Assembly (NCBI RefSeq): GCF_900142765.1
Contig: NZ_FRCB01000001.1
Span: 248,001-312,000 of the forward strand
Direction: 5' to 3'
Origin: Roseovarius litoreus
GTDB lineage: Bacteria > Pseudomonadota > Alphaproteobacteria > Rhodobacterales > Rhodobacteraceae
DNA: 64,000 nt
Program-made: the position numbers and the translations under genes
Notes under the pieces: model-generated
The model's input: only the letters and a program-made list of their open reading frames with translations
The model's database searches: none
Told to the model about the DNA's origin: nothing
Shown here: positions 5,325 through 15,006 of the stretch, one piece after another
How positions within the stretch are numbered: the stretch's first letter is position 1
Layout of the letters: each line of letters starts with the position of its first letter

Positions 5325-6767
5325 ATGATCGAAAAACGGCAATTCTACATTGATGGCGCCTGGGTCAACCCGCGCGCCGGCACCGATTACCACGTGATCG
5401 ACCCTTCCACCGAAGATCCCTGCGCTGTGATCTCGCTTGGCGGTCAGGCCGACACCGATGCGGCCGTCGCCGCCGCGCACGCGGCCTTTCCCTCATGGCG
5501 CCGCACCAGCAAGGCCGAGAGGCTGGCGCTCGTCGAAAAGCTCTATGACGTCTACAAGTCCCGCTCCGAAGAGATGGCCCAGGCCATCAGCATGGAAATG
5601 GGCGCGCCCATCGACATGGCCCGCCAGCAACAGGCCGGCGCGGGCCTCGGGCATATCAAGGCGTTCCTGACGGTGGCGAAGGATTTCGAATTCATCGAAC
5701 CGCTCGGCGATCACGCCCCCAATGACCGGATCGTGCATGAACCGATTGGCGTGGTGGCGATGATCACGCCCTGGAACTGGCCCATGAACCAGGTCACGCT
5801 CAAGGTGATCGCGGGCGCCATCGCGGGCTGCACCATGGTCCTCAAACCGTCCGAGGAATCGCCGCTCTCGGCCATGCTCTTCGCCGAGATGATGCATGAG
5901 GCGGGATTTCCCAAGGGGGTGTTCAACCTGGTGAATGGCGACGGCGCGGGCGTGGGCACGCAGCTGTCGACCCATGAGCATGTCGACATGGTCAGCTTCA
6001 CGGGCTCCTCGCGCGCCGGCAAGCTCATTTCCAAGGCCGCTGCCGACACGCTCAAGCGGGTCAGTCTCGAACTGGGCGGCAAGGGCGCGAACCTGATCTT
6101 TGCGGATGCCGACGACAAGGCCGTGAAGCGCGGTGTCCTGCATTGCATGAACAATTCCGGTCAGTCCTGTAACGCACCCACCCGAATGCTCGTTCAACGC
6201 GACATCTACGATCAGGCCGTCGAAACCGCAGCCGAAGTCGCCAATTCTGTTCAGGTCGGCTCGGGCCATGACGAAGGCCGGCACATGGGCCCCGTCGTCA
6301 ACGAGGTGCAGTTCAACAAGATCCAGGACCTGATCCAGAAGGGCATCGACGAAGGCGCGCGCCTTGTCGCGGGCGGCGTCGGGCGCCCCGACGGGCTCAA
6401 TCGCGGCTTCTATGTGCGCCCCACGGTCTTTGCGGATGTCACCAACGACATGACCATCGCCCGCGAGGAAATCTTCGGCCCCGTCCTGTCGATCATGGCC
6501 TTCGACACCGAGGAAGAGGCGCTCGCCATCGCCAATGACACGCCCTACGGGCTGACCAACTATGTCCAGACACAGGATCCCGCCCGCGCCAATCGCTGCG
6601 CGCTGGCCCTGCGATCGGGCATGGTCGAGATGAATGGCCAGAGCCGCGGTCTCGGCTCGCCCTTCGGCGGCATGAAACAGTCCGGCAATGGCCGCGAGGG
6701 CGGCAAATGGGGCATCGAGGACTTCCTCGAGGTCAAGGCCGTCTCCGGCTGGACCGAAGGCGCCTGA
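5325..6767 (+). CDS. NAD(P)-dependent aldehyde dehydrogenase
   Basis: I place the start at ATG 5325 because AAGGAGG lies seven to eight bases upstream. The in-frame codons from 5235 look non-coding. The 480-residue product has the complete ALDH fold. TPWNWPMNQVTLK and the KPSEESPLSA loop bind NAD(P), SFTGSSRAGK is the Rossmann-like turn, LELGGKGAN carries the general-base glutamate, and NNSGQSCNAP carries the nucleophilic cysteine. EEIFGPVLS and SPFGGMKQSGNGREGG complete the family signature. It oxidises an aldehyde to the carboxylate in the cytoplasm. The substrate cannot be named, and a link to polysaccharide synthesis is not implied by position alone. A strong GC hairpin follows. Confidence 0.93.
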   Translation: MIEKRQFYIDGAWVNPRAGTDYHVIDPSTEDPCAVISLGGQADTDAAVAAAHAAFPSWRRTSKAERLALVEKLYDVYKSRSEEMAQAISMEMGAPIDMARQQQAGAGLGHIKAFLTVAKDFEFIEPLGDHAPNDRIVHEPIGVVAMITPWNWPMNQVTLKVIAGAIAGCTMVLKPSEESPLSAMLFAEMMHEAGFPKGVFNLVNGDGAGVGTQLSTHEHVDMVSFTGSSRAGKLISKAAADTLKRVSLELGGKGANLIFADADDKAVKRGVLHCMNNSGQSCNAPTRMLVQRDIYDQAVETAAEVANSVQVGSGHDEGRHMGPVVNEVQFNKIQDLIQKGIDEGARLVAGGVGRPDGLNRGFYVRPTVFADVTNDMTIAREEIFGPVLSIMAFDTEEEALAIANDTPYGLTNYVQTQDPARANRCALALRSGMVEMNGQSRGLGSPFGGMKQSGNGREGGKWGIEDFLEVKAVSGWTEGA

Positions 6768-6781
6768 CCCAAGGCACCGAT

Positions 6782-6817
6782 CCGCGCGCGGGGTCGCCCA
6801 AAAGGCCCCGCGCGCGG
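6782..6817 (+). terminator. GC-rich hairpin after the aldehyde dehydrogenase
   Basis: CCGCGCGCGGGG at 6782-6793 pairs perfectly with CCCCGCGCGCGG at 6806-6817 across a 12-base loop, 15 bases after the stop codon. There is no clean U-tract directly behind it, so it could act with Rho or only protect the 3' end. Confidence 0.5.
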
Positions 6818-6888
6818 TCACAGCTGCGTCAAAGCGGCGTTTTTTCGCCCGGCCCGGCTTGCAAGCTGCCCCCACGTGGCTAATGAGG

Positions 6889-8073
6889 GGGCGCAACACG
6901 GATCAAACGGGAGCGTCGCGGCGCGCCATGAAATACAGAGCTGAGATCGACGGGCTGCGCACGGTGGCGGTGGTGCCGGTGGTGCTGTTCCATGCCGGAT
7001 GGGACGTGTTCTCGGGCGGCTATGTCGGCGTCGATGTGTTCTTCGTGATCTCGGGCTTTCTCATCACCTCGATCATCATCGGCGAACGCGCCGAGGGCCG
7101 TTTCTCGATCCTGCGCTTTTACGAGCGCCGCGCGCGCCGCATCCTGCCCGCCCTTTTCGTCGTGCTCGCCGCCACCCTGCCCTTCGCATGGGCCTGGATG
7201 CCACCCGACGCGTTCGAGGATTTCCTGCGCAGCCTCGCCTTTGCAGCGCTCTTCATCTCGAACGTTCATTTCTGGGAATATTCGGGCTATTTCGCGCAAG
7301 CCTCAGAAATGCGCCCGCTTCTGCACACCTGGAGCCTCGCGGTCGAGGAACAATACTACCTCCTCTTCCCGCTGCTGATGGCCGCTCTTGGCGCCTTCAG
7401 CCGCCGCAAGCATATCGCGGTGATCGGGGTTCTGGCCTTCCTGTCGCTCGCGCTCAGCGAATGGGGCTGGCGGAACTATCCGGAAGAAAACTTCTTCTTC
7501 ACATTCTCCCGCATGTGGGAGCTGTTTGCAGGCTCGCTTTGCGCCTTCATCGCCTTCCGCCGCGAGCTGCGCGGCAACCAGATCCTGTCGCTCATCGGCA
7601 TGGGCCTGATCCTGTGGTCGGTCTTCGCCTATGACGCCTCGGTGCCTTTTCCCTCGGTCTACACTTTGGTGCCGGTGGTGGGCACTGCCCTCGTTCTGCT
7701 CTTCGCACAACAAGGCACGGCCGTCGCATGGGTCCTGTCGCGCAAACTGCCCGTCGTGATCGGGCTGATCAGCTATTCGGCTTACCTTTGGCACCAGCCG
7801 CTTCTGGCCTTCGCCCGCATCCGCAGCCTGCATGAGCCATCCCTTTGGCTCATGAGCGGGCTGGCTCTCGCCAGTTTCGCGCTCGCCGCCCTCACCTGGC
7901 GCTATGTCGAACAGCCCTTCCGCTCGGGCCCCCACCGCATGCTCCTGCCCGCTCGCCCCGCGCTCTTCGGCGCCAGCCTCGCCGGCATCGCCGCCTTCGC
8001 CGCCTTCGGCTTCACCGGCCTCGCCGCCGACTGGAGCAACGCGCGCCTCACCGCGAAAATGACGCCGTTCTAC
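6889..8073 (+). repeat. Acyltransferase array, homologous unit 1
   Basis: This stretch, from the 5' leader through the membrane half of the first acyltransferase, is nearly identical in DNA to 9860-10971 and 11863-13014. It matches unit 2 in the 38-base leader before the start codon, and matches unit 3 through the TTCTAC at 8068-8073, after which the sequences part abruptly. Confidence 0.85.
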
Positions 8074-8967
8074 AGCACCGCGCTTTATCCGTCGGTCGAT
8101 CTGCGCCCCATTCCCAACTGCTACGACCTGAATGCCAATCCCGATCTCGATTCCTATAGCGAGGTCATCTGCCGCGTCTACGAAGCAGAGGGCGCCCCCT
8201 CCAGCACCATCGCCGTCTTCGGCGACAGCCATGCGCAGGCGATCCTGCCCGCGCTGGACAAATACGCCGCGACCCACAACGCCACCGTTCTCAAATCCGG
8301 CCTTCCCGGCTGTCCGCCGCTCTTGGACACCTATATCTGGGGCGGTCCCCTGAACCTCGGCACCTGTTACGCCACCGCCCGCGCGCAGGCCCGGTTCGTG
8401 GCGGAAAACGATGTCGATACCGTGATCCTCGTGGCCCGCTGGTCGGTCTATTCCCACGGCGAATACAACCCCGCCGACAACCTCATCTTCCTCACCGAAG
8501 AGCCGACACCCCAATCCTGGGGGATCGAGTCCTCGCATGACGTACTCAGCCGCAGCCTTCCCGCCACGGTGAGGCACTACCGCGACCTCGGCGTGAATGT
8601 GGTGGTCGTCGAGCAAGTGCCCCAGCAAAAGGCCGTGCCCGTCGACGTAACCTACAAGGCGATCTTCCGCCAATTGGACGAGACCGAGGCACAGGCATAT
8701 TTCCACGACACCGCCGTCAACGCCGATGAAAACGACCGCCTGCAGCAATCGGCCTCCGACATCATCCGCGCCCTCGATGGCGTCACCGTGATCGAAACCT
8801 CCGCACCCTTCATGCGGGACGGCAAATACCAGTGGTTCCTCGATGGCGCGCTGGCCTATACCGACGATGACCACCTGTCGACCTATGGCGCGGCCCTCCT
8901 GCAGGACACCTTCGCCGACGCCTTGCGCTCGCTCTCCGAGGTCAGCCAGACAACGGGGGGCAATTGA
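6928..8967 (+). CDS. Acyltransferase-3/SGNH fusion, copy 1
   Basis: The start is ATG 6928, the point where all three copies begin MKYRAEIDGLR. Upstream in-frame codons from 6688 lie in the aldehyde dehydrogenase and hairpin. The 679-residue protein has an OafA/YrhL-like acyltransferase-3 membrane domain (about residues 1-370, roughly ten helices). It includes VLFHAGWDVFSGGYVGVDVF with the catalytic histidine, and ERRARRILPALFV. A periplasmic SGNH domain starts at about residue 380, with GDSHAQAILPA near residue 432 and DDHLSTYGA near 648 supplying serine and histidine. The membrane part would carry an acyl group across the membrane and the SGNH part would place it on a surface glycan. A glycosyltransferase follows after seven bases, so the two are probably cotranscribed. 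Confidence 0.92.
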   Translation: MKYRAEIDGLRTVAVVPVVLFHAGWDVFSGGYVGVDVFFVISGFLITSIIIGERAEGRFSILRFYERRARRILPALFVVLAATLPFAWAWMPPDAFEDFLRSLAFAALFISNVHFWEYSGYFAQASEMRPLLHTWSLAVEEQYYLLFPLLMAALGAFSRRKHIAVIGVLAFLSLALSEWGWRNYPEENFFFTFSRMWELFAGSLCAFIAFRRELRGNQILSLIGMGLILWSVFAYDASVPFPSVYTLVPVVGTALVLLFAQQGTAVAWVLSRKLPVVIGLISYSAYLWHQPLLAFARIRSLHEPSLWLMSGLALASFALAALTWRYVEQPFRSGPHRMLLPARPALFGASLAGIAAFAAFGFTGLAADWSNARLTAKMTPFYSTALYPSVDLRPIPNCYDLNANPDLDSYSEVICRVYEAEGAPSSTIAVFGDSHAQAILPALDKYAATHNATVLKSGLPGCPPLLDTYIWGGPLNLGTCYATARAQARFVAENDVDTVILVARWSVYSHGEYNPADNLIFLTEEPTPQSWGIESSHDVLSRSLPATVRHYRDLGVNVVVVEQVPQQKAVPVDVTYKAIFRQLDETEAQAYFHDTAVNADENDRLQQSASDIIRALDGVTVIETSAPFMRDGKYQWFLDGALAYTDDDHLSTYGAALLQDTFADALRSLSEVSQTTGGN

Positions 8968-8974
8968 CGCGGTC

Positions 8975-9805
8975 ATGGTGCTTTCATCGCTCAAACGCTA
9001 CATCGCCTCGCTGCCGAAACGGCGGATCGAGGCGCGTCTCGCCCAAACGGGCAACCGGCTTTGTGTCCTCGGCATCGTCAAAAACGAGGTCGAGGCGATC
9101 GACGAGTGGGTCGAACATTACCTTTGGCAGGGCGCCGCCGGGATTTTCGTGATCGACAATGGCAGCGATGACGGCACCCTCGAGGCCCTGCAGAAATGGG
9201 TCGAGCGCGGCAAGGTCGAGCTTATCCAACTGAACAAACCGCACCGCCAGCGCCAGCATTACTGGACCGCGATCAAGGCTTTTCGGCTGCGCCAGCGATT
9301 TGAATGGCTGCTCATCGCCGATGCCGATGAATTCTGGTTCTGCCGCGATGGCAGCACCCTGCAGCACAAGCTCGACACGCTCGAGGGCATCGACTGGGTC
9401 AAGCTGATCTATGCCCGCTGGACACTCTTCGGCAGTTCCGGCCATGACGAACAGCCCGCCAGCATCCGCAAGGGCTTTGTCCATCGGCAAGAGGCGTTTG
9501 GCTCGCTGCTTCATGCGAAATGGATCTGCCGTACCGCCGATCTCAAACGCTTCGGCATGCTCGACATCCACCGTGTGCGCGGCATCTGCTCGTCCAAGAC
9601 CGTGATGCTGGACGATATCTTCCAGGTCAACCATTATCAGATCCAGAGCCGCTCATTCTACACGCGCAAGAAGCTTACACGCGGAGATGTGATTTCTGCA
9701 CGCAATATTCGTCACATACAAAATTTCGAGGAGCTGGACCAAAGATGCACTGTCCGGGACGATACGCTCGCCAATAGGGTGCCAGACGACTCCAGAAACA
9801 CGTAA
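8975..9805 (+). CDS. Glycosyltransferase (GT2/GT92-like)
   Basis: I choose ATG 8975, seven bases after the acyltransferase stop. Earlier in-frame codons overlap that gene. The 276-residue protein starts a GT-A fold at NRLCVLGIVKNEVEAIDEWV. It then has VIDNGSDDGTLEAL and the metal site LLIADADEFWF, the pattern of the GT92/DUF23-like branch of family 2 transferases. It has no membrane helix. The distance and direction suggest one transcript with acyltransferase copy 1, perhaps making the sugar residue that the acyltransferase modifies, which is inference. The last 40 residues, after the FYTRKKLTRGD segment, look poorly conserved, and the gene ends just before the duplicated leader of copy 2. 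Confidence 0.82.
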   Translation: MVLSSLKRYIASLPKRRIEARLAQTGNRLCVLGIVKNEVEAIDEWVEHYLWQGAAGIFVIDNGSDDGTLEALQKWVERGKVELIQLNKPHRQRQHYWTAIKAFRLRQRFEWLLIADADEFWFCRDGSTLQHKLDTLEGIDWVKLIYARWTLFGSSGHDEQPASIRKGFVHRQEAFGSLLHAKWICRTADLKRFGMLDIHRVRGICSSKTVMLDDIFQVNHYQIQSRSFYTRKKLTRGDVISARNIRHIQNFEELDQRCTVRDDTLANRVPDDSRNT

Positions 9806-9859
9806 GACCAGACATCATGCGAAACTTGGGCTTTATACTCGGTGCGCACGAAACTATGA

Positions 9860-10971
9860 GGGCGCAACACGGATCAAACGGGAGCGTCGCGGCGCGCCAT
9901 GAAATACAGAGCTGAGATCGACGGGCTGCGCACGGTGGCGGTGGTGCCGGTGGTGCTGTTCCATGCCGGCTGGGACGTGTTCTCGGGCGGTTATGTCGGC
10001 GTCGATGTGTTCTTCGTGATCTCGGGCTTTCTCATCACCTCGATCATCATCGGCGAACGCGCCGAGGGGCGTTTCTCCATCCTGCGCTTTTACGAGCGCC
10101 GCGCCCGCCGCATCCTGCCCGCCCTTTTCGTCGTGCTCGCCGCCACCCTGCCCTTCGCATGGGCCTGGATGCCGCCCGACGCGTTCGAGGATTTCCTGCG
10201 CAGCCTCGCTTTCGCAGCCCTTTTCATCTCGAACGTGCATTTCTGGGAATATTCGGGCTATTTCGCGCAAGCCTCGGAAATGCGCCCGCTTCTGCACACC
10301 TGGAGCCTCGCGGTCGAGGAGCAATATTACGTCTTTTTCCCGCTCCTGATGGCCGCCCTCGGCGCCTTCAGCCGCCGCAAGCATATCGCGGTGATCGGGG
10401 TTCTGGCCTTCCTGTCGCTCGCGCTCAGCGAATGGGGCTGGCGGAACTATCCGGAAGAAAACTTCTTCTTCACATTCTCCCGCATGTGGGAGCTGTTTGC
10501 AGGCTCGCTTTGCGCCTTCATCGCCTTCCGCCGCGAGCTGCGGGGCAACCAGATCCTGTCGCTCATCGGCATGGGCCTGATCCTGTGGTCAGTCTTCGCC
10601 TATGACGCCTCGGTGCCCTTTCCTTCGGTCTATACGCTGGTGCCGGTCATCGGCACGGCCCTAGTTCTGCTCTTTGCCCAACAGGGTACGGCGGTCGCCT
10701 GGGTCCTGTCGCGCAAGCTGCCGGTGGCCATCGGGCTGATCAGCTATTCGGCCTATCTCTGGCACCAGCCGCTTCTGGCCTTCGCGCGCATCCGCAGCCT
10801 GCATGAGCCATCCCTTTGGCTGATGAGCGGGCTAGCGCTGGCCAGTTTCGCGCTCGCCGCCCTTACCTGGCACTATGTCGAACAGCCCTTCCGCTCGGGC
10901 CCCCACCGCATGCTCCTGCCCGCGCGCCCCGCCCTCTTCGGCGCCAGCCTCGCCGGCATCGCCGCCTTCGC
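9860..10971 (+). repeat. Acyltransferase array, homologous unit 2
   Basis: This unit shares the GGCGCAACACGGATC leader with unit 1 and stays nearly identical to units 1 and 3 until about 10971. There GCCGCCTTCG runs into unrelated sequence. The break is about 75 bases earlier than the one separating units 1 and 3. Confidence 0.85.
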
Positions 10972-11824
10972 GGCAATCGGCATGGCCGGAAAATCCACCG
11001 ACTGGAGCAATGCCGCATTCGCCAGCCCGATGATGCGCGCCTATGGGCAATCCCTTCGCATCAATCACGGGCTGAACGATGCCTGCGCCGACAGTTTCAA
11101 GGCCCCCGAAGCCTGCCGCACCGGCGACGCGCCCGAGCTTCTGATCTGGGGCGACAGCTATGCCATGCATCTGGTGCCGGGCTTTCTGGCCTCGGACCCC
11201 GCCCCAGTTCTCAAGCAAAGCACGATCTATTCCTGCAGCCCCGTCCTCGGCGTGACCGCCACGACCGACCGGGCCACAGAACACGCGCTGCATTGTCTGA
11301 ATTTCAACGCGCGCACCCTTGATTGGCTGGCGGGCCAGGACAGCGTCACACATGTGGTGCTGTCCTCACCCTTCCATCTGGTCGGCACCAATCTGCTCAC
11401 CTCCGAGGGCAAGATCATCCCTGCAGGCGACAACACCGACCTGCTGATCGCGGCCATGCAGAATACCGTCACCGCCATTCGCGCGCTTGGCAAGAAGGTC
11501 ATCGTCTTTGCCCCCACGCCCAGCCTCGGCACGGATCTTGGCACTTGTGCGGTCAAGGCGATCGCCTATCTCAACGACGAAGCCTATTGCGACTTCGATC
11601 AGGCCAGCGCCCGCAACGCGGCACTCGAGACATTCTTCGACCGGCTGGCGCAAGTGGTGCCGGTCGTGACCCTCGAAGACATGATTTGCGACGGTACGCG
11701 CTGCGATGTGGTGCAGGACGGCGTCGTGCTCTATCGCGATGCGGGCCACCTGTCGATCCCCGGATCACGGTGGCTGGGTGCCCGACATGATTTCTGGGGC
11801 CTCACCCGTAACCGGGCCGAGTGA
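9899..11824 (+). CDS. Acyltransferase-3/SGNH fusion, copy 2 (different SGNH half)
   Basis: The 641-residue protein has a membrane half (residues 1 to about 358) almost identical to copies 1 and 3. The visible changes are few, such as QYYVFFPLL for QYYLLFPLL and TWHYVEQPF for TWRYVEQPF. The SGNH half is of another type, with LLIWGDSYAMHLVPGF near residue 418 and DAGHLSIPGSRW near residue 614. It is shorter and lacks the GCPPLL segment of the other two. The predicted reaction is O-acylation of a cell-envelope glycan, with a specificity distinct from its neighbours. It carries the same leader as copy 1. Copy 3 follows directly, with an in-frame GTG overlapping this stop by four bases. Confidence 0.92.
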   Translation: MKYRAEIDGLRTVAVVPVVLFHAGWDVFSGGYVGVDVFFVISGFLITSIIIGERAEGRFSILRFYERRARRILPALFVVLAATLPFAWAWMPPDAFEDFLRSLAFAALFISNVHFWEYSGYFAQASEMRPLLHTWSLAVEEQYYVFFPLLMAALGAFSRRKHIAVIGVLAFLSLALSEWGWRNYPEENFFFTFSRMWELFAGSLCAFIAFRRELRGNQILSLIGMGLILWSVFAYDASVPFPSVYTLVPVIGTALVLLFAQQGTAVAWVLSRKLPVAIGLISYSAYLWHQPLLAFARIRSLHEPSLWLMSGLALASFALAALTWHYVEQPFRSGPHRMLLPARPALFGASLAGIAAFAAIGMAGKSTDWSNAAFASPMMRAYGQSLRINHGLNDACADSFKAPEACRTGDAPELLIWGDSYAMHLVPGFLASDPAPVLKQSTIYSCSPVLGVTATTDRATEHALHCLNFNARTLDWLAGQDSVTHVVLSSPFHLVGTNLLTSEGKIIPAGDNTDLLIAAMQNTVTAIRALGKKVIVFAPTPSLGTDLGTCAVKAIAYLNDEAYCDFDQASARNAALETFFDRLAQVVPVVTLEDMICDGTRCDVVQDGVVLYRDAGHLSIPGSRWLGARHDFWGLTRNRAE

Positions 11825-11862
11825 GCGAGCGACATGATGAGCAACGAGACATCCAAAAGGCC

Positions 11863-13014
11863 CGCGCCATGAAGTACAGAGCTGAGATCGACGGGCTGCG
11901 CACGGTGGCGGTGGTGCCGGTGGTGCTGTTCCATGCCGGCTGGGACGTGTTCTCGGGCGGCTATGTCGGCGTCGATGTGTTCTTCGTGATCTCGGGCTTT
12001 CTCATCACCTCGATCATCATCGGCGAACGCGCCGAGGGCCGTTTCTCCATCCTGCGCTTTTACGAGCGCCGCGCCCGGCGCATTCTGCCCGCACTTTTCG
12101 TGGTGCTCGCCGCGACGCTACCCTTTGCATGGGCCTGGATGCCGCCCGACGCGTTCGAGGATTTCCTGCGCAGCCTCGCTTTCGCAGCCCTTTTCATCTC
12201 GAACGTGCATTTCTGGGAATATTCCGGCTATTTCGCCCAGGCCTCGGAAATGCGCCCACTTCTGCACACCTGGAGCCTCGCGGTCGAGGAACAATATTAC
12301 CTTCTCTTCCCGCTCTTGATGGCCGCCCTTGGCGCCTTCAGCCGCCGCAAGCATATCGCGGTGATCGGGGTGCTGGCCTTCCTGTCGCTCGCGCTTAGCG
12401 AATGGGGCTGGCGCAACTACCCGGAAGAAAACTTCTTCTTCACCTTCTCGCGCATGTGGGAGCTGTTTGCAGGCTCGCTTTGCGCCTTCATCGCCTTTCG
12501 CCGCGAGCTGCGCGGCAACCAGATCCTGTCGCTCATCGGCATGGGCCTGATCCTGTGGTCGGTCTTCGCCTATGACGCCTCGGTGCCCTTTCCTTCGGTC
12601 TACACACTGGTGCCGGTCATCGGCACAGCGCTGGTGCTGCTCTTTGCCCAACAGGGTACGGCCGTCGCCTGGGTGCTGTCGCGCAAGCTGCCCGTCGCAA
12701 TCGGACTGATCAGCTATTCGGCCTATCTCTGGCACCAGCCGCTTCTGGCCTTCGCGCGCATCCGCAGCCTGCATGAGCCCTCACTCTGGCTCATGAGCGG
12801 GCTGGCGCTGGCCAGTTTCGCGCTTGCCGCCCTCACCTGGCGCTATGTCGAACAGCCCTTCCGCTCGGGCCCCCACCGCATGCTCCTGCCCGCTCGCCCC
12901 GCCCTCTTCGGCGCCAGCCTCGCCGGAATCGCCGCCTTCGCCGCCTTCGGCTTCACCGGCCTCGCCGCCGACTGGAGCAACGCGCGCCTCACCGCGAAAA
13001 TGACGCCGTTCTAC
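11863..13014 (+). repeat. Acyltransferase array, homologous unit 3
   Basis: Homology to units 1 and 2 begins just before the start codon (CGCGCCATGAA) and, against unit 1, continues to TTCTAC at 13014. Silent differences are scattered in blocks that agree now with unit 1 and now with unit 2. Confidence 0.85.
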
Positions 13015-13890
13015 TCGGAATTTCTGCAAACTACCCACGGCATGTCCCACCCGGAAGGCTGCACCGGCTTTGGCGATGTCGGACAGGCGCCGCAACTGGT
13101 GTGCCCTGTCCATGATTACGCGGATGCGACGCAAACCATCGCCGTGTTCGGCGACAGCCATGCCGACGCGATCCTGCCCGCCTTCGAGGCTTTTGCCGAC
13201 AACACACGAACCAAGGTGGTCAAGATGGGAACGGCCGGCTGCCCGCCCCTTCTGGGCGTCTATGTTTGGAACGGAAATTATGCGCTTGGCGTTTGCCACG
13301 CAGCCGCCGAGGCACAGGCAAAATTCGTTCAGGAAAACGATATCTCGGCTGTGGTGCTGGTCGCCCGTTGGTCACTTTATACGCAAGCCGGTTACGAGGG
13401 GCATGGTCGGCACTATCTGCTCAATGACGAAAACGCACTGCAAACCGGCGGGCCGTCGGCCTCGCGCGCCGTATTCGAGGCAGCAGTCCGGCGCACCGCC
13501 GAGTTCTATGCGGGACTTGGCGTCAAGCTCTTCGTCGTCGAACAGATCCCTCAACTGACCTTCGAGCCGAAGGACATCGTCTATGCGGCCCTGTTCCAGG
13601 ACCGGAGCGGCGAAAGCGCCTTGAGCTTCTTTGATCTGCAAACCCTGCCCGCAGAGCGTCACCAGACCTTGCAAAGCTACAACTTGGGCGTTTTTCAGAG
13701 CGTCGAAGACCTGACGCTTGTATCCTTCGGAGATGCCTTCCTGCGCGATGGCGCCTTCCATTGGGCCTTTGACGGCAAAAGCGCCTATAGCGATGCCAAT
13801 CACCTCTCGATCCACGGCGCACGCATGTTGCAGGATCGGGTCCAACACATGCTCCAGAGCACACGGCAAGCCCCGGCCGTTACCGACTGA
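11869..13890 (+). CDS. Acyltransferase-3/SGNH fusion, copy 3
   Basis: I choose ATG 11869 because MKYRAEIDGLR begins here in all copies. A GTG at 11821 is in frame and overlaps the previous stop as GTGA, so translational coupling from there is possible and would add 16 residues. The 673-residue protein has the shared membrane acyltransferase-3 half and an SGNH half related to copy 1 but clearly diverged. AVFGDSHADAILPAF lies near residue 428, GCPPLLGVYVW is shared, and ANHLSIHGA lies near the end. Copies 1 and 3 also share the junction peptide ending TAKMTPFYS, which copy 2 lacks. The role is inferred to be O-acylation of a surface polysaccharide at the periplasmic face. Confidence 0.92.
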   Translation: MKYRAEIDGLRTVAVVPVVLFHAGWDVFSGGYVGVDVFFVISGFLITSIIIGERAEGRFSILRFYERRARRILPALFVVLAATLPFAWAWMPPDAFEDFLRSLAFAALFISNVHFWEYSGYFAQASEMRPLLHTWSLAVEEQYYLLFPLLMAALGAFSRRKHIAVIGVLAFLSLALSEWGWRNYPEENFFFTFSRMWELFAGSLCAFIAFRRELRGNQILSLIGMGLILWSVFAYDASVPFPSVYTLVPVIGTALVLLFAQQGTAVAWVLSRKLPVAIGLISYSAYLWHQPLLAFARIRSLHEPSLWLMSGLALASFALAALTWRYVEQPFRSGPHRMLLPARPALFGASLAGIAAFAAFGFTGLAADWSNARLTAKMTPFYSEFLQTTHGMSHPEGCTGFGDVGQAPQLVCPVHDYADATQTIAVFGDSHADAILPAFEAFADNTRTKVVKMGTAGCPPLLGVYVWNGNYALGVCHAAAEAQAKFVQENDISAVVLVARWSLYTQAGYEGHGRHYLLNDENALQTGGPSASRAVFEAAVRRTAEFYAGLGVKLFVVEQIPQLTFEPKDIVYAALFQDRSGESALSFFDLQTLPAERHQTLQSYNLGVFQSVEDLTLVSFGDAFLRDGAFHWAFDGKSAYSDANHLSIHGARMLQDRVQHMLQSTRQAPAVTD

Positions 13891-13959
13891 CGCGGTTCTG
13901 CATATGGCGGCCCTCGCATACTCTTTCCCTGTCCGGCGAAAACCCCTAAGACAATCGCG

Positions 13960-15006
13960 ATGAGCACGCGCCCCGATATCGCAATCAAAGCCTTCGTGCC
14001 CGAAACCGTGCACAAACGCGACATCTTCTCCGAGACCATCTCGGGGCATCTCGAAGGCGTCAGCGATTTTCCGGTCGTCCTGCGCAAACTCGACACCGTG
14101 CCGATCTATGCCCGTGCAATCGCGTGGGCGCTCGCGCGTCGCGAGACCCGTGCCCTGCGCGCCGTCACCGGGATCGAAGGCTGCCCCCTGCTGATCCGCG
14201 TCGATCGCAGTGGCCTGCTGCGCAGCTGGACCCAAGGGACACCGCTGCAGCTGGCAAAGCCCTCCGATCCGGCGTGGTACCGCGACGCAAAACGCCTGCT
14301 GCGCCAGATGCGCCGCGCCGGTGTGACCCATAACGACATCGCCAAACCGCAGAACTGGCTGATGACACCCGCAGGCCGCGCCGCAGTGATCGATTTTCAG
14401 CTGGCCACCGTGCATCGCCGCCGGGGCAAGCTCTTCCGGATCATGGCCCGCGAGGATCTGCGCCATCTGCTCAAGCAGAAACGCGCCTATGCCCCGGATC
14501 TGCTCACCCCTTCCGAATCCCGGATGCTGGCGCAAAAAGCGCTGCCTGCGCAAATCTGGATGGCCACCGGCAAGCGCCTTTACAATTTCATCACCCGACG
14601 CCTGATGAACTGGTCGGATGGGGAAGGCACCGAGGACCGGATCGAACGCGATGGCCCCGGCCTGCGCGCGGCGCTCCTGAAACACCCGAATGTCACGGAT
14701 ATCGCGCTTTACACCTACGCACGCCCTGCCAAGGGTGTGGGGCTTTACGCTTTCGTGGAAACCGATCTCGATGCCGGTCGCATCTCGGCGCTGACCCCCG
14801 ATCCCGCCCCCGATCTCATGCAGCCGGTCGCAAGACTGCCGCGCGACGCCGCCGGCGCCATCCGCCATGACGCCTTGCAGCTTGTCGCCACGAACCGGCT
14901 CGACGAGCTCACCGGCCTGACCGCCACAGACCCCGAGCTCGAGCGCGTGCTGAAACCGATCGTCGCGGACCGGCTCAACCTGACCGACCGTGTGCTTCGG
15001 TCCTGA
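13960..15006 (+). CDS. Kinase-fold protein (RIO/LPS-kinase-like)
   Basis: The 348-residue protein has a protein-kinase-like catalytic core. THNDIAKPQNWLM near residue 128 gives the catalytic aspartate and the asparagine, and AAVIDFQLATVHRR near residue 145 gives the metal-binding aspartate. The N-terminal lobe (residues 20-100) is short, and the C-terminal 150 residues are a separate region with no motif I recognise. Such small kinases in Gram-negative bacteria act either on proteins or on lipopolysaccharide core sugars. The position at the end of a polysaccharide block favours the latter, but this is inference. A conserved intergenic hairpin unit lies between it and the convergent pseudouridine synthase. 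Confidence 0.75.
   Translation: MSTRPDIAIKAFVPETVHKRDIFSETISGHLEGVSDFPVVLRKLDTVPIYARAIAWALARRETRALRAVTGIEGCPLLIRVDRSGLLRSWTQGTPLQLAKPSDPAWYRDAKRLLRQMRRAGVTHNDIAKPQNWLMTPAGRAAVIDFQLATVHRRRGKLFRIMAREDLRHLLKQKRAYAPDLLTPSESRMLAQKALPAQIWMATGKRLYNFITRRLMNWSDGEGTEDRIERDGPGLRAALLKHPNVTDIALYTYARPAKGVGLYAFVETDLDAGRISALTPDPAPDLMQPVARLPRDAAGAIRHDALQLVATNRLDELTGLTATDPELERVLKPIVADRLNLTDRVLRS

What the first reader, a model, noticed from the sequence alone, without database searches (positions are those of the whole stretch)
6889..13890. Three tandem acyltransferases with a shared membrane half and exchangeable SGNH halves
The genes at 6928, 9899 and 11869 have almost identical acyltransferase-3 halves (about 360-380 residues, only a handful of substitutions seen) but different periplasmic SGNH halves. 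Families of this type O-acylate surface glycans. A constant membrane donor half joined to swappable specificity halves would let a strain diversify its surface acylation by recombination, much like a cassette system.
Basis: partly seen in the sequence, partly recalled or inferred. Interest (0 to 1): 0.75.

Follow-up and report, generated by a model that had tools for sequence, protein, structure and literature searches.

The report
Three acyltransferases, one membrane half
A marine bacterium carries three neighbouring enzymes that probably decorate its surface sugars; they share almost the same membrane half but have quite different outer halves, so protein halves were joined anew by recombination, which offers a natural test of which half picks the sugar.

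Summary
Genes A (6928), B (9899) and C (11869) are intact AT3-SGNH acyltransferases. Their first 358 residues differ at only 2-5 positions, while the SGNH halves are 21-38% identical. Identity breaks at codon 358 (A/B, B/C; inside the 11th membrane helix) and codon 383 (A/C; in the linker). In 141 related proteins, the 29 other pairs with AT3 identity of at least 90% all have SGNH identity of 72-94%. The SGNH data reject an A+B+C clade; B's outer half is nearest to that of a fourth copy upstream, whose AT3 half is not close to B's. So the halves have different histories. The AT3 halves are not fresh copies: they differ at 5-6% of bases, nearly all silent, in a patchwork that suggests later gene conversion. 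The array fills a site between two core Roseovarius genes; none of 19 relatives' versions of that gap holds such genes. Exchange of halves in the past is supported; a working cassette system is not (no lone SGNH half found, no recombinase among the neighbours scanned, no strain data). Most likely: three O-acyltransferases of a surface glycan sharing one acyl-delivering membrane half and differing in acceptor.

The parts
6928..8967 (+). Gene A, AT3-SGNH acyltransferase (679 aa)
   Evidence: PF01757 and PF19040; GDS at 432 and DxxH at 646; AF2 pLDDT 93.7
9899..11824 (+). Gene B, AT3-SGNH acyltransferase (641 aa); AT3 half as in A and C, SGNH half of another subfamily
   Evidence: PF01757 and PF19040; GDS at 418, DxxH at 614; trees; AF2 pLDDT 91.0
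11869..13890 (+). Gene C, AT3-SGNH acyltransferase (673 aa)
   Evidence: PF01757 and PF19040; GDS at 428, DxxH at 642
6928..8000 (+). Shared AT3 half of A (B: 9899-10971; C: 11869-12941); 93.6-95.0% identical DNA over 1,065 nt, 98.5-99.4% identical protein over 340 aligned columns
8001..8074 (+). Junction region in A: A/B and B/C identity breaks at codon 358 (A 8001; B 10972; C 12942), inside TM helix 11; A/C identity runs on to codon 383 (A 8074; C 13015), in the linker before the SGNH domain
   Evidence: helices
6889..6927 (+). 39-base leader of A, identical to the leader of B
9860..9898 (+). 39-base leader of B, identical to the leader of A
8975..9805 (+). Glycosyltransferase (Glyco_tranf_2_4 / GT92) between A and B; likely start ATG at 8975
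   Evidence: scanned from 8984; start codon read
5325..6767 (+). Aldehyde dehydrogenase, core-gene anchor left of the array
   Evidence: PF00171; upstream of the kinase-like gene in 19 of 20 relatives' loci
13960..15006 (+). Kinase-like gene, core-gene anchor right of the array
   Evidence: weak PF01636, below cut-off; matched in 65 of 83 genus genomes, own included

Best explanation
A, B and C are three O-acyltransferases of the OafA/OafB type, set between two core genes of a Roseovarius chromosome near other surface-glycan genes. Shown: their AT3 halves share a far more recent ancestry than their SGNH halves, with sharp junctions at the 11th membrane helix (B) and in the linker (A/C). So recombination joined one AT3 lineage to at least two SGNH subfamilies, and the AT3 halves have since kept nearly the same protein. 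Moderately supported: after formation, tracts were exchanged between the three AT3 halves (gene conversion), giving a patchwork of silent differences. Inferred: the common half takes the acyl group from the cytoplasm through the membrane, and each SGNH half with its linker passes it to a different sugar or position, so the strain makes up to three acylations with one donor module. Exchange is historical; no programmed switching is claimed.
For: Pairs: window pairs 98.5-99.4% AT3 against 21-38% SGNH; the 29 other pairs with AT3 of at least 90% have SGNH 71.8-93.8%. Silent divergence, which protein selection should hardly touch, differs about sixfold between the halves (dS 0.21-0.30 in AT3, 1.27-1.80 in SGNH); in the 39 other close pairs it is at most twofold in 33 and 2.2-3.8-fold in six. 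Trees of 49 proteins: AT3 A+B+C 100%; SGNH A+B+C rejected (p-AU 0.0003); AT3 B + fourth copy rejected (p-AU 5e-76), while B's SGNH is closest to the fourth copy's, 43%. A/C SGNH 38.2% is below their 39.8-44.4% to five other genomes' SGNH. Patchwork: 43 runs of odd-copy labels against 56.9 +/- 4.0 in shuffles, 10 of 20,000 as low, one label per codon; A/B dS 0 in codons 166-195, 0.86 in 241-270. GDS and DxxH present in all three. Acceptor choice limited by linker and SGNH in OafA/OafB: PMC7448272 (passages). Insert site.
Against: The SGNH tree does not reject A+C as sisters (p-AU 0.287), so for that pair an old duplication with AT3 homogenisation fits as well as exchange of the outer half. MaxChi found no significant single breakpoint (40-83 of 300 shuffles as high), so the conversion step rests on the run test and on clustering. 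A 5-6% DNA difference means no very recent exchange of the whole AT3 half. The SGNH dS values rest on poor alignments. Acyl group, acceptors and expression are untested. The direction (AT3 copied onto old genes, or SGNH halves placed behind AT3 copies) is open.
Confidence: 0.77

Rival explanations
1. Old whole-gene duplicates whose AT3 halves stayed alike by purifying selection alone, with a fast-evolving SGNH half; no recombination.
For: AT3 differences are nearly all silent; dN/dS 0.011-0.034 is the lowest among 42 pairs with AT3 of at least 88% (other 39: 0.035-0.263; A/B and the lowest control are practically tied), so constraint is strong.
Against: Silent divergence also differs about sixfold between the halves; in 33 of 39 other close pairs it differs at most twofold, in the other six 2.2-3.8-fold. 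SGNH A+B+C rejected, p-AU 0.0003.
Confidence: 0.05
2. Recent whole-gene triplication followed by diversifying selection on the SGNH half.
For: Tandem arrangement; acceptor-binding surfaces may be under diversifying pressure (inference).
Against: SGNH of B groups with the fourth copy and six other proteins, one of the same genus, one of the same family and four of other groups, not with A or C; A and C SGNH are nearer to other species' than to each other; AT3 dS of 0.2-0.3 is too low for SGNH identities of 21-38%, judged by the other close pairs.
Confidence: 0.04
3. Programmed cassette or shuffling system: SGNH halves are exchanged at present by a recombinase or from silent copies to switch surface acylation.
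For: Constant half plus variable halves in tandem; patchwork in the constant half.
Against: No SGNH half without AT3 in the own genome at the thresholds used; no recombinase among the 20 proteins scanned (not every ORF was scanned); only three imperfect inverted repeats of 19-23 nt; all three genes look intact and co-directional.
Confidence: 0.07
4. Assembly error: reads of similar AT3 halves misjoined to SGNH halves.
For: Repeats of about 1.07 kb at 94-95% identity could mislead a short-read assembly.
Against: The copies differ at about one base in 16-20, the array lies inside an 864-kb contig, and the only further AT3 match in the genome is 59%. A misjoin cannot itself create three near-identical AT3 halves.
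Confidence: 0.04

Closest known systems
OafA / OafB, Salmonella O-antigen acetyltransferases (AT3-SGNH; SGNH part of OafB solved as 6SE1)
   Same: Same domain order and, for the window genes, the Pfam families named for it; 6SE1 is the only PDB sequence match of the profile at E 0.001 (E 4e-7) and the best fold match of the model of A; same TM11-linker-SGNH layout (against passages of PMC9833829).
   Different: No array of near-identical AT3 halves with different SGNH halves is described in the passages read.
Concerted evolution by gene conversion between prokaryotic paralogues (PMC6053082, passages)
   Same: Paralogues in one genome are more alike than to relatives' genes.
   Different: There silent and non-silent sites are both alike in most cases; here only one domain is homogenised and silent sites differ in patches.
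Constant-plus-variable recombination systems such as HsdS specificity subunits, S-layer sap genes, pilin or fibre cassettes (recalled, no call)
   Same: A constant part and exchangeable specificity parts.
   Different: No silent cassette, recombinase or switching was found here; all copies are full length.

Membership tests
AT3-SGNH acyltransferases (OafA/OafB type) | N-terminal Acyl_transf_3 (PF01757) fused to SGNH (PF19040) | tested here: met
   All three genes, above cut-offs
AT3-SGNH acyltransferases (OafA/OafB type) | 11th membrane helix and linker before a SGNH fold with catalytic Ser, Asp, His | tested here: met
   AF2 models of A and B; GDS and DxxH in A, B, C; 6SE1 best match for the model of A. 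C was not modelled; the model of B was not searched.
AT3-SGNH acyltransferases (OafA/OafB type) | Transfers an acyl group to a surface glycan | not testable with these tools
   No activity data; glycan genes nearby
Domain-limited concerted evolution / gene conversion | Silent sites far more alike in one segment than in the rest, with another history in the rest | tested here: met
Domain-limited concerted evolution / gene conversion | Patchwork of exchange tracts between copies | tested here: inconclusive
   Run test positive (10 of 20,000), MaxChi not significant
Cassette or shuffling system | Silent donor copies | tested here: not met
   No lone SGNH half in the own genome at E 1e-10 / 1e-20
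Cassette or shuffling system | A dedicated recombinase nearby | tested here: inconclusive
   None among the 20 proteins scanned with Pfam; not every ORF was scanned
Cassette or shuffling system | Different arrangements between cells or strains | not testable with these tools
   One genome per species; no reads

The most novel reading that the evidence does not exclude
A one-donor, many-heads acylation module: gene conversion keeps exposing each AT3 variant to three different SGNH partners, so AT3 is held to a generalist sequence that works with all of them (hence the lowest dN/dS in the comparison set), while new SGNH heads can be plugged in behind it, giving a strain several acceptor specificities that spread and change between strains.
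Probability: 0.2. Interest if true: 0.75.

Novelty: new variant of a known kind. Interest (0 to 1): 0.52.

Why it matters
In AT3-SGNH enzymes it is unsettled how the acyl group passes from the membrane half to the SGNH half (PMC9558356, passages), and what fixes the acceptor is known only in part (PMC7448272, passages). Here nature has joined one membrane half to three heads, from two SGNH subfamilies, with the catalytic motifs intact. If the three act on different sugars, acceptor choice lies in the SGNH half and linker, and the contact surface to AT3 must be generic. It also shows where natural junctions fall (TM11 and linker).

Tried and rejected
Synteny around 13 loci with relatives' AT3 genes: one search found no array neighbour beside them (only weak DMGDH-like matches in two, L127 and L133); in that call my SGNH-B and SGNH-C queries were in the wrong frame, so their absence there means nothing; searches used right frames. 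A LysE feature query was also out of frame and is not used.

Plasmids as source: of 519 records matched, one is above 60% (62.5%), so no near donor in that collection.

Other arrays: family (394 genomes, E 1e-60, capped listing), class (385, E 1e-75) and phylum (398, E 1e-75) searches plus fetched within-genome pairs gave no second case; many genomes with two or more hits were not fetched, so a second case is not excluded.

Inverted repeat between the leader (6904-6926) and gene C (12105-12127), 87% over 23 nt: by my own estimate, computed by no call, about what chance gives here; dropped.

MaxChi: no significant breakpoint. In the divergent patch alone (codons 226-300) 12 of 16 control comparisons of dN/dS are not significant.

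My notes gave 44 and 41 for the dN/dS pairs; recounted it is 42 and 39.

fourth protein: coordinates on the wrong strand; result ignored.

Full report
What is there. Three genes on the + strand have their shared ATG at 6928, 9899 and 11869 and end in TGA at 8967, 11824 and 13890; the longest ORFs of A and C begin further upstream, at 6688 and 11821. Each matches Acyl_transf_3 (PF01757) and the SGNH domain fused to AT3 (PF19040) above Pfam's cut-offs. Between A and B lies a glycosyltransferase (8975-9805); an aldehyde dehydrogenase precedes the array and a kinase-like gene follows. The gaps between these six genes are 7 to 160 bases, all on one strand, so an operon is likely (inference). The window lies in contig C1 of a genome of the genus Roseovarius: same-genus genome G033 has a contig of exactly the length of R. 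pacificus NZ_FRBR01000001.1 with the match at the same place.

The two halves. In the first 358 residues A/B differ at five positions, A/C at two, B/C at three. A MAFFT alignment shows the collapse of identity in 60-base steps. By a stricter rule identity breaks at codon 358 for A/B and B/C and at codon 383 for A/C. In the AlphaFold2 model of A (63 sequences, pLDDT 93.7) I read helix 343-366 as the 11th membrane helix, helices 369-377 and 380-390 as the linker, and the SGNH fold from about 415; so the B junction lies inside TM11 and the A/C junction in the linker. The model of B is nearly as confident (43 sequences, pLDDT 91.0). All three keep GDS and DxxH.

More than chance. From L001-L176 I took ORFs of at least 560 aa whose AT3 half aligns; proteins identical beyond the first five residues were dropped, leaving 141 proteins, the three window genes included, and 9,870 pairs. 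Of these, 32 pairs have AT3 identity of at least 90%. The three window pairs have SGNH identity of 38.2, 20.8 and 21.7%; the other 29 have 71.8-93.8%. Lower down, AT3 and SGNH also come apart: of 235 pairs with AT3 of at least 70%, 71 have SGNH under 30%, seven of them with a window gene, so exchange of SGNH halves may be common at greater depth; the window is the only near case in this set. Within genomes, 46 pairs (three of them the window's own and three of window genes with the fourth copy) and ten more show no other such case; the highest AT3 identity elsewhere is 76.6%. One pair of identical proteins (G051, inside a stretch identical over the whole 20 kb fetched) was removed as a duplicate.

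Different histories. In trees of 49 of these proteins the AT3 halves of A, B and C form one clade (100%), next to one gene each of five Roseovarius genomes at 75.5-78.2%. The SGNH halves do not: A and C fall in a seven-row clade with those five, while B falls in an eight-row clade with the genome's own fourth copy (C1:240350, upstream of the window; in L123), one gene of the same genus, one of the same family and four of other groups. Holding A, B and C together in the SGNH tree is rejected (p-AU 0.0003); holding B with the fourth copy in the AT3 tree is rejected (p-AU 5e-76). Holding A and C together in the SGNH tree is not rejected (p-AU 0.287). A/C SGNH identity (38.2%) is still below that of either to the five relatives (39.8-44.4%). 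Silent divergence agrees: dS 0.21-0.30 in AT3 against 1.27-1.80 in SGNH, about sixfold. In the 39 other pairs with AT3 of at least 88%, SGNH dS is at most twice AT3 dS in 33 and 2.2-3.8 times in six.

Not fresh copies. The AT3 halves differ at 55, 68 and 53 of 1,065 bases, nearly all silent. The 86 variable sites are clustered (variance/mean 2.94 per 60 bases), and the odd copy comes in runs: 45 against 59.2 +/- 4.1 in shuffles (11 of 20,000 as low); with one label per codon 43 against 56.9 +/- 4.0 (10 of 20,000). A/B have no difference over 182 bases and dS of 0.86 in codons 241-270. This fits exchange of tracts between copies; MaxChi gave no significant breakpoint (40-83 of 300 shuffles as high), so I call it moderate evidence. 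dN/dS of 0.011-0.034 is the lowest of the 42 pairs (other 39: 0.035-0.263, the lowest of them practically a tie with A/B). Against 16 control pairs that I chose, A/C has relatively fewer non-silent changes in each (Fisher p 0.037 to 1.7e-10, not corrected for number of tests); in codons 226-300 alone 12 of the 16 comparisons are not significant.

The place in the genome. The kinase-like gene is matched in 65 of 83 genus genomes, own included. I fetched its surroundings in 20 of the 64 others. The aldehyde dehydrogenase lies upstream of it in 19 of 20 (not within reach in L219), with a gap of 191-2,442 bases against 7.2 kb here. None of the 19 gaps holds an AT3 or SGNH match at E 1e-10; the one AT3 match in these loci, 36% in L206, lies beyond the aldehyde dehydrogenase. 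In one relative (L218) the gap holds GT25 and GT11 glycosyltransferases; a 248-aa ORF in the gap of L205 had no Pfam match; the other gaps were judged only by eye. So the array is an insert, not seen in the sampled relatives, at a site whose content varies and at least in part concerns glycans. Upstream of the window, around the fourth copy, lie an ABC transporter, RgpF-like, nucleotidyltransferase, DegT aminotransferase, methyltransferase and hexapeptide genes, as in surface-glycan clusters (inference).

How it most likely works. In OafA/OafB the AT3 part is thought to bring the acyl group across the membrane and the SGNH part to transfer it to the sugar; the structured linker narrows the acceptor choice (PMC7448272 and PMC9558356, passages). 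By this, A, B and C share one donor half and differ in the part that chooses the acceptor: in B from the middle of TM11 on, in A against C from within the linker on. That they acylate different sugars is inference.

Verdict. It is a new variant of a known kind: a domain-limited, homogenised tandem array of AT3-SGNH enzymes. Literature searches listed no such report, but only open-access papers are held and only passages of four were seen.

Noticed in passing
L123:12350-14263 (G000:C1:240350, about 7.7 kb upstream of the window): A fourth AT3-SGNH gene; its SGNH half is the nearest found to that of B (43%), its AT3 half only 58%.
   Followed up: yes
window 6767-13960, and L204-L223: The gap between the aldehyde dehydrogenase and the kinase-like gene varies from 191 to 2,442 bases in 19 relatives and holds GT25 and GT11 genes in the one that was identified; it looks like a site where glycan genes are exchanged.
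   Followed up: partly
L067 and L068 (Vreelandella/Halomonas): Two nearby, oppositely oriented AT3-SGNH genes with AT3 70-73% and SGNH 18-20% alike: perhaps an older exchange of halves.
   Followed up: no
L055, L056, L060, L064 (Aliiroseovarius): AT3 92-96% alike throughout, but SGNH about 72-75% between L055/L060 and L056/L064 against 88-90% within each pair, with SGNH dS 2.2-3.8 times AT3 dS across: perhaps a milder exchange of the outer half.
   Followed up: no
L104 (Endozoicomonas), L079 (SAR86), L092 (Methylophilaceae): AT3 halves 78-81% identical across distant bacteria with SGNH halves at 16-18%, suggesting transfer with exchange of SGNH halves.
   Followed up: no
L134 and L135 (G051): Two stretches 43 kb apart, identical over the whole 20 kb fetched, each with an AT3-SGNH gene.
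   Followed up: partly
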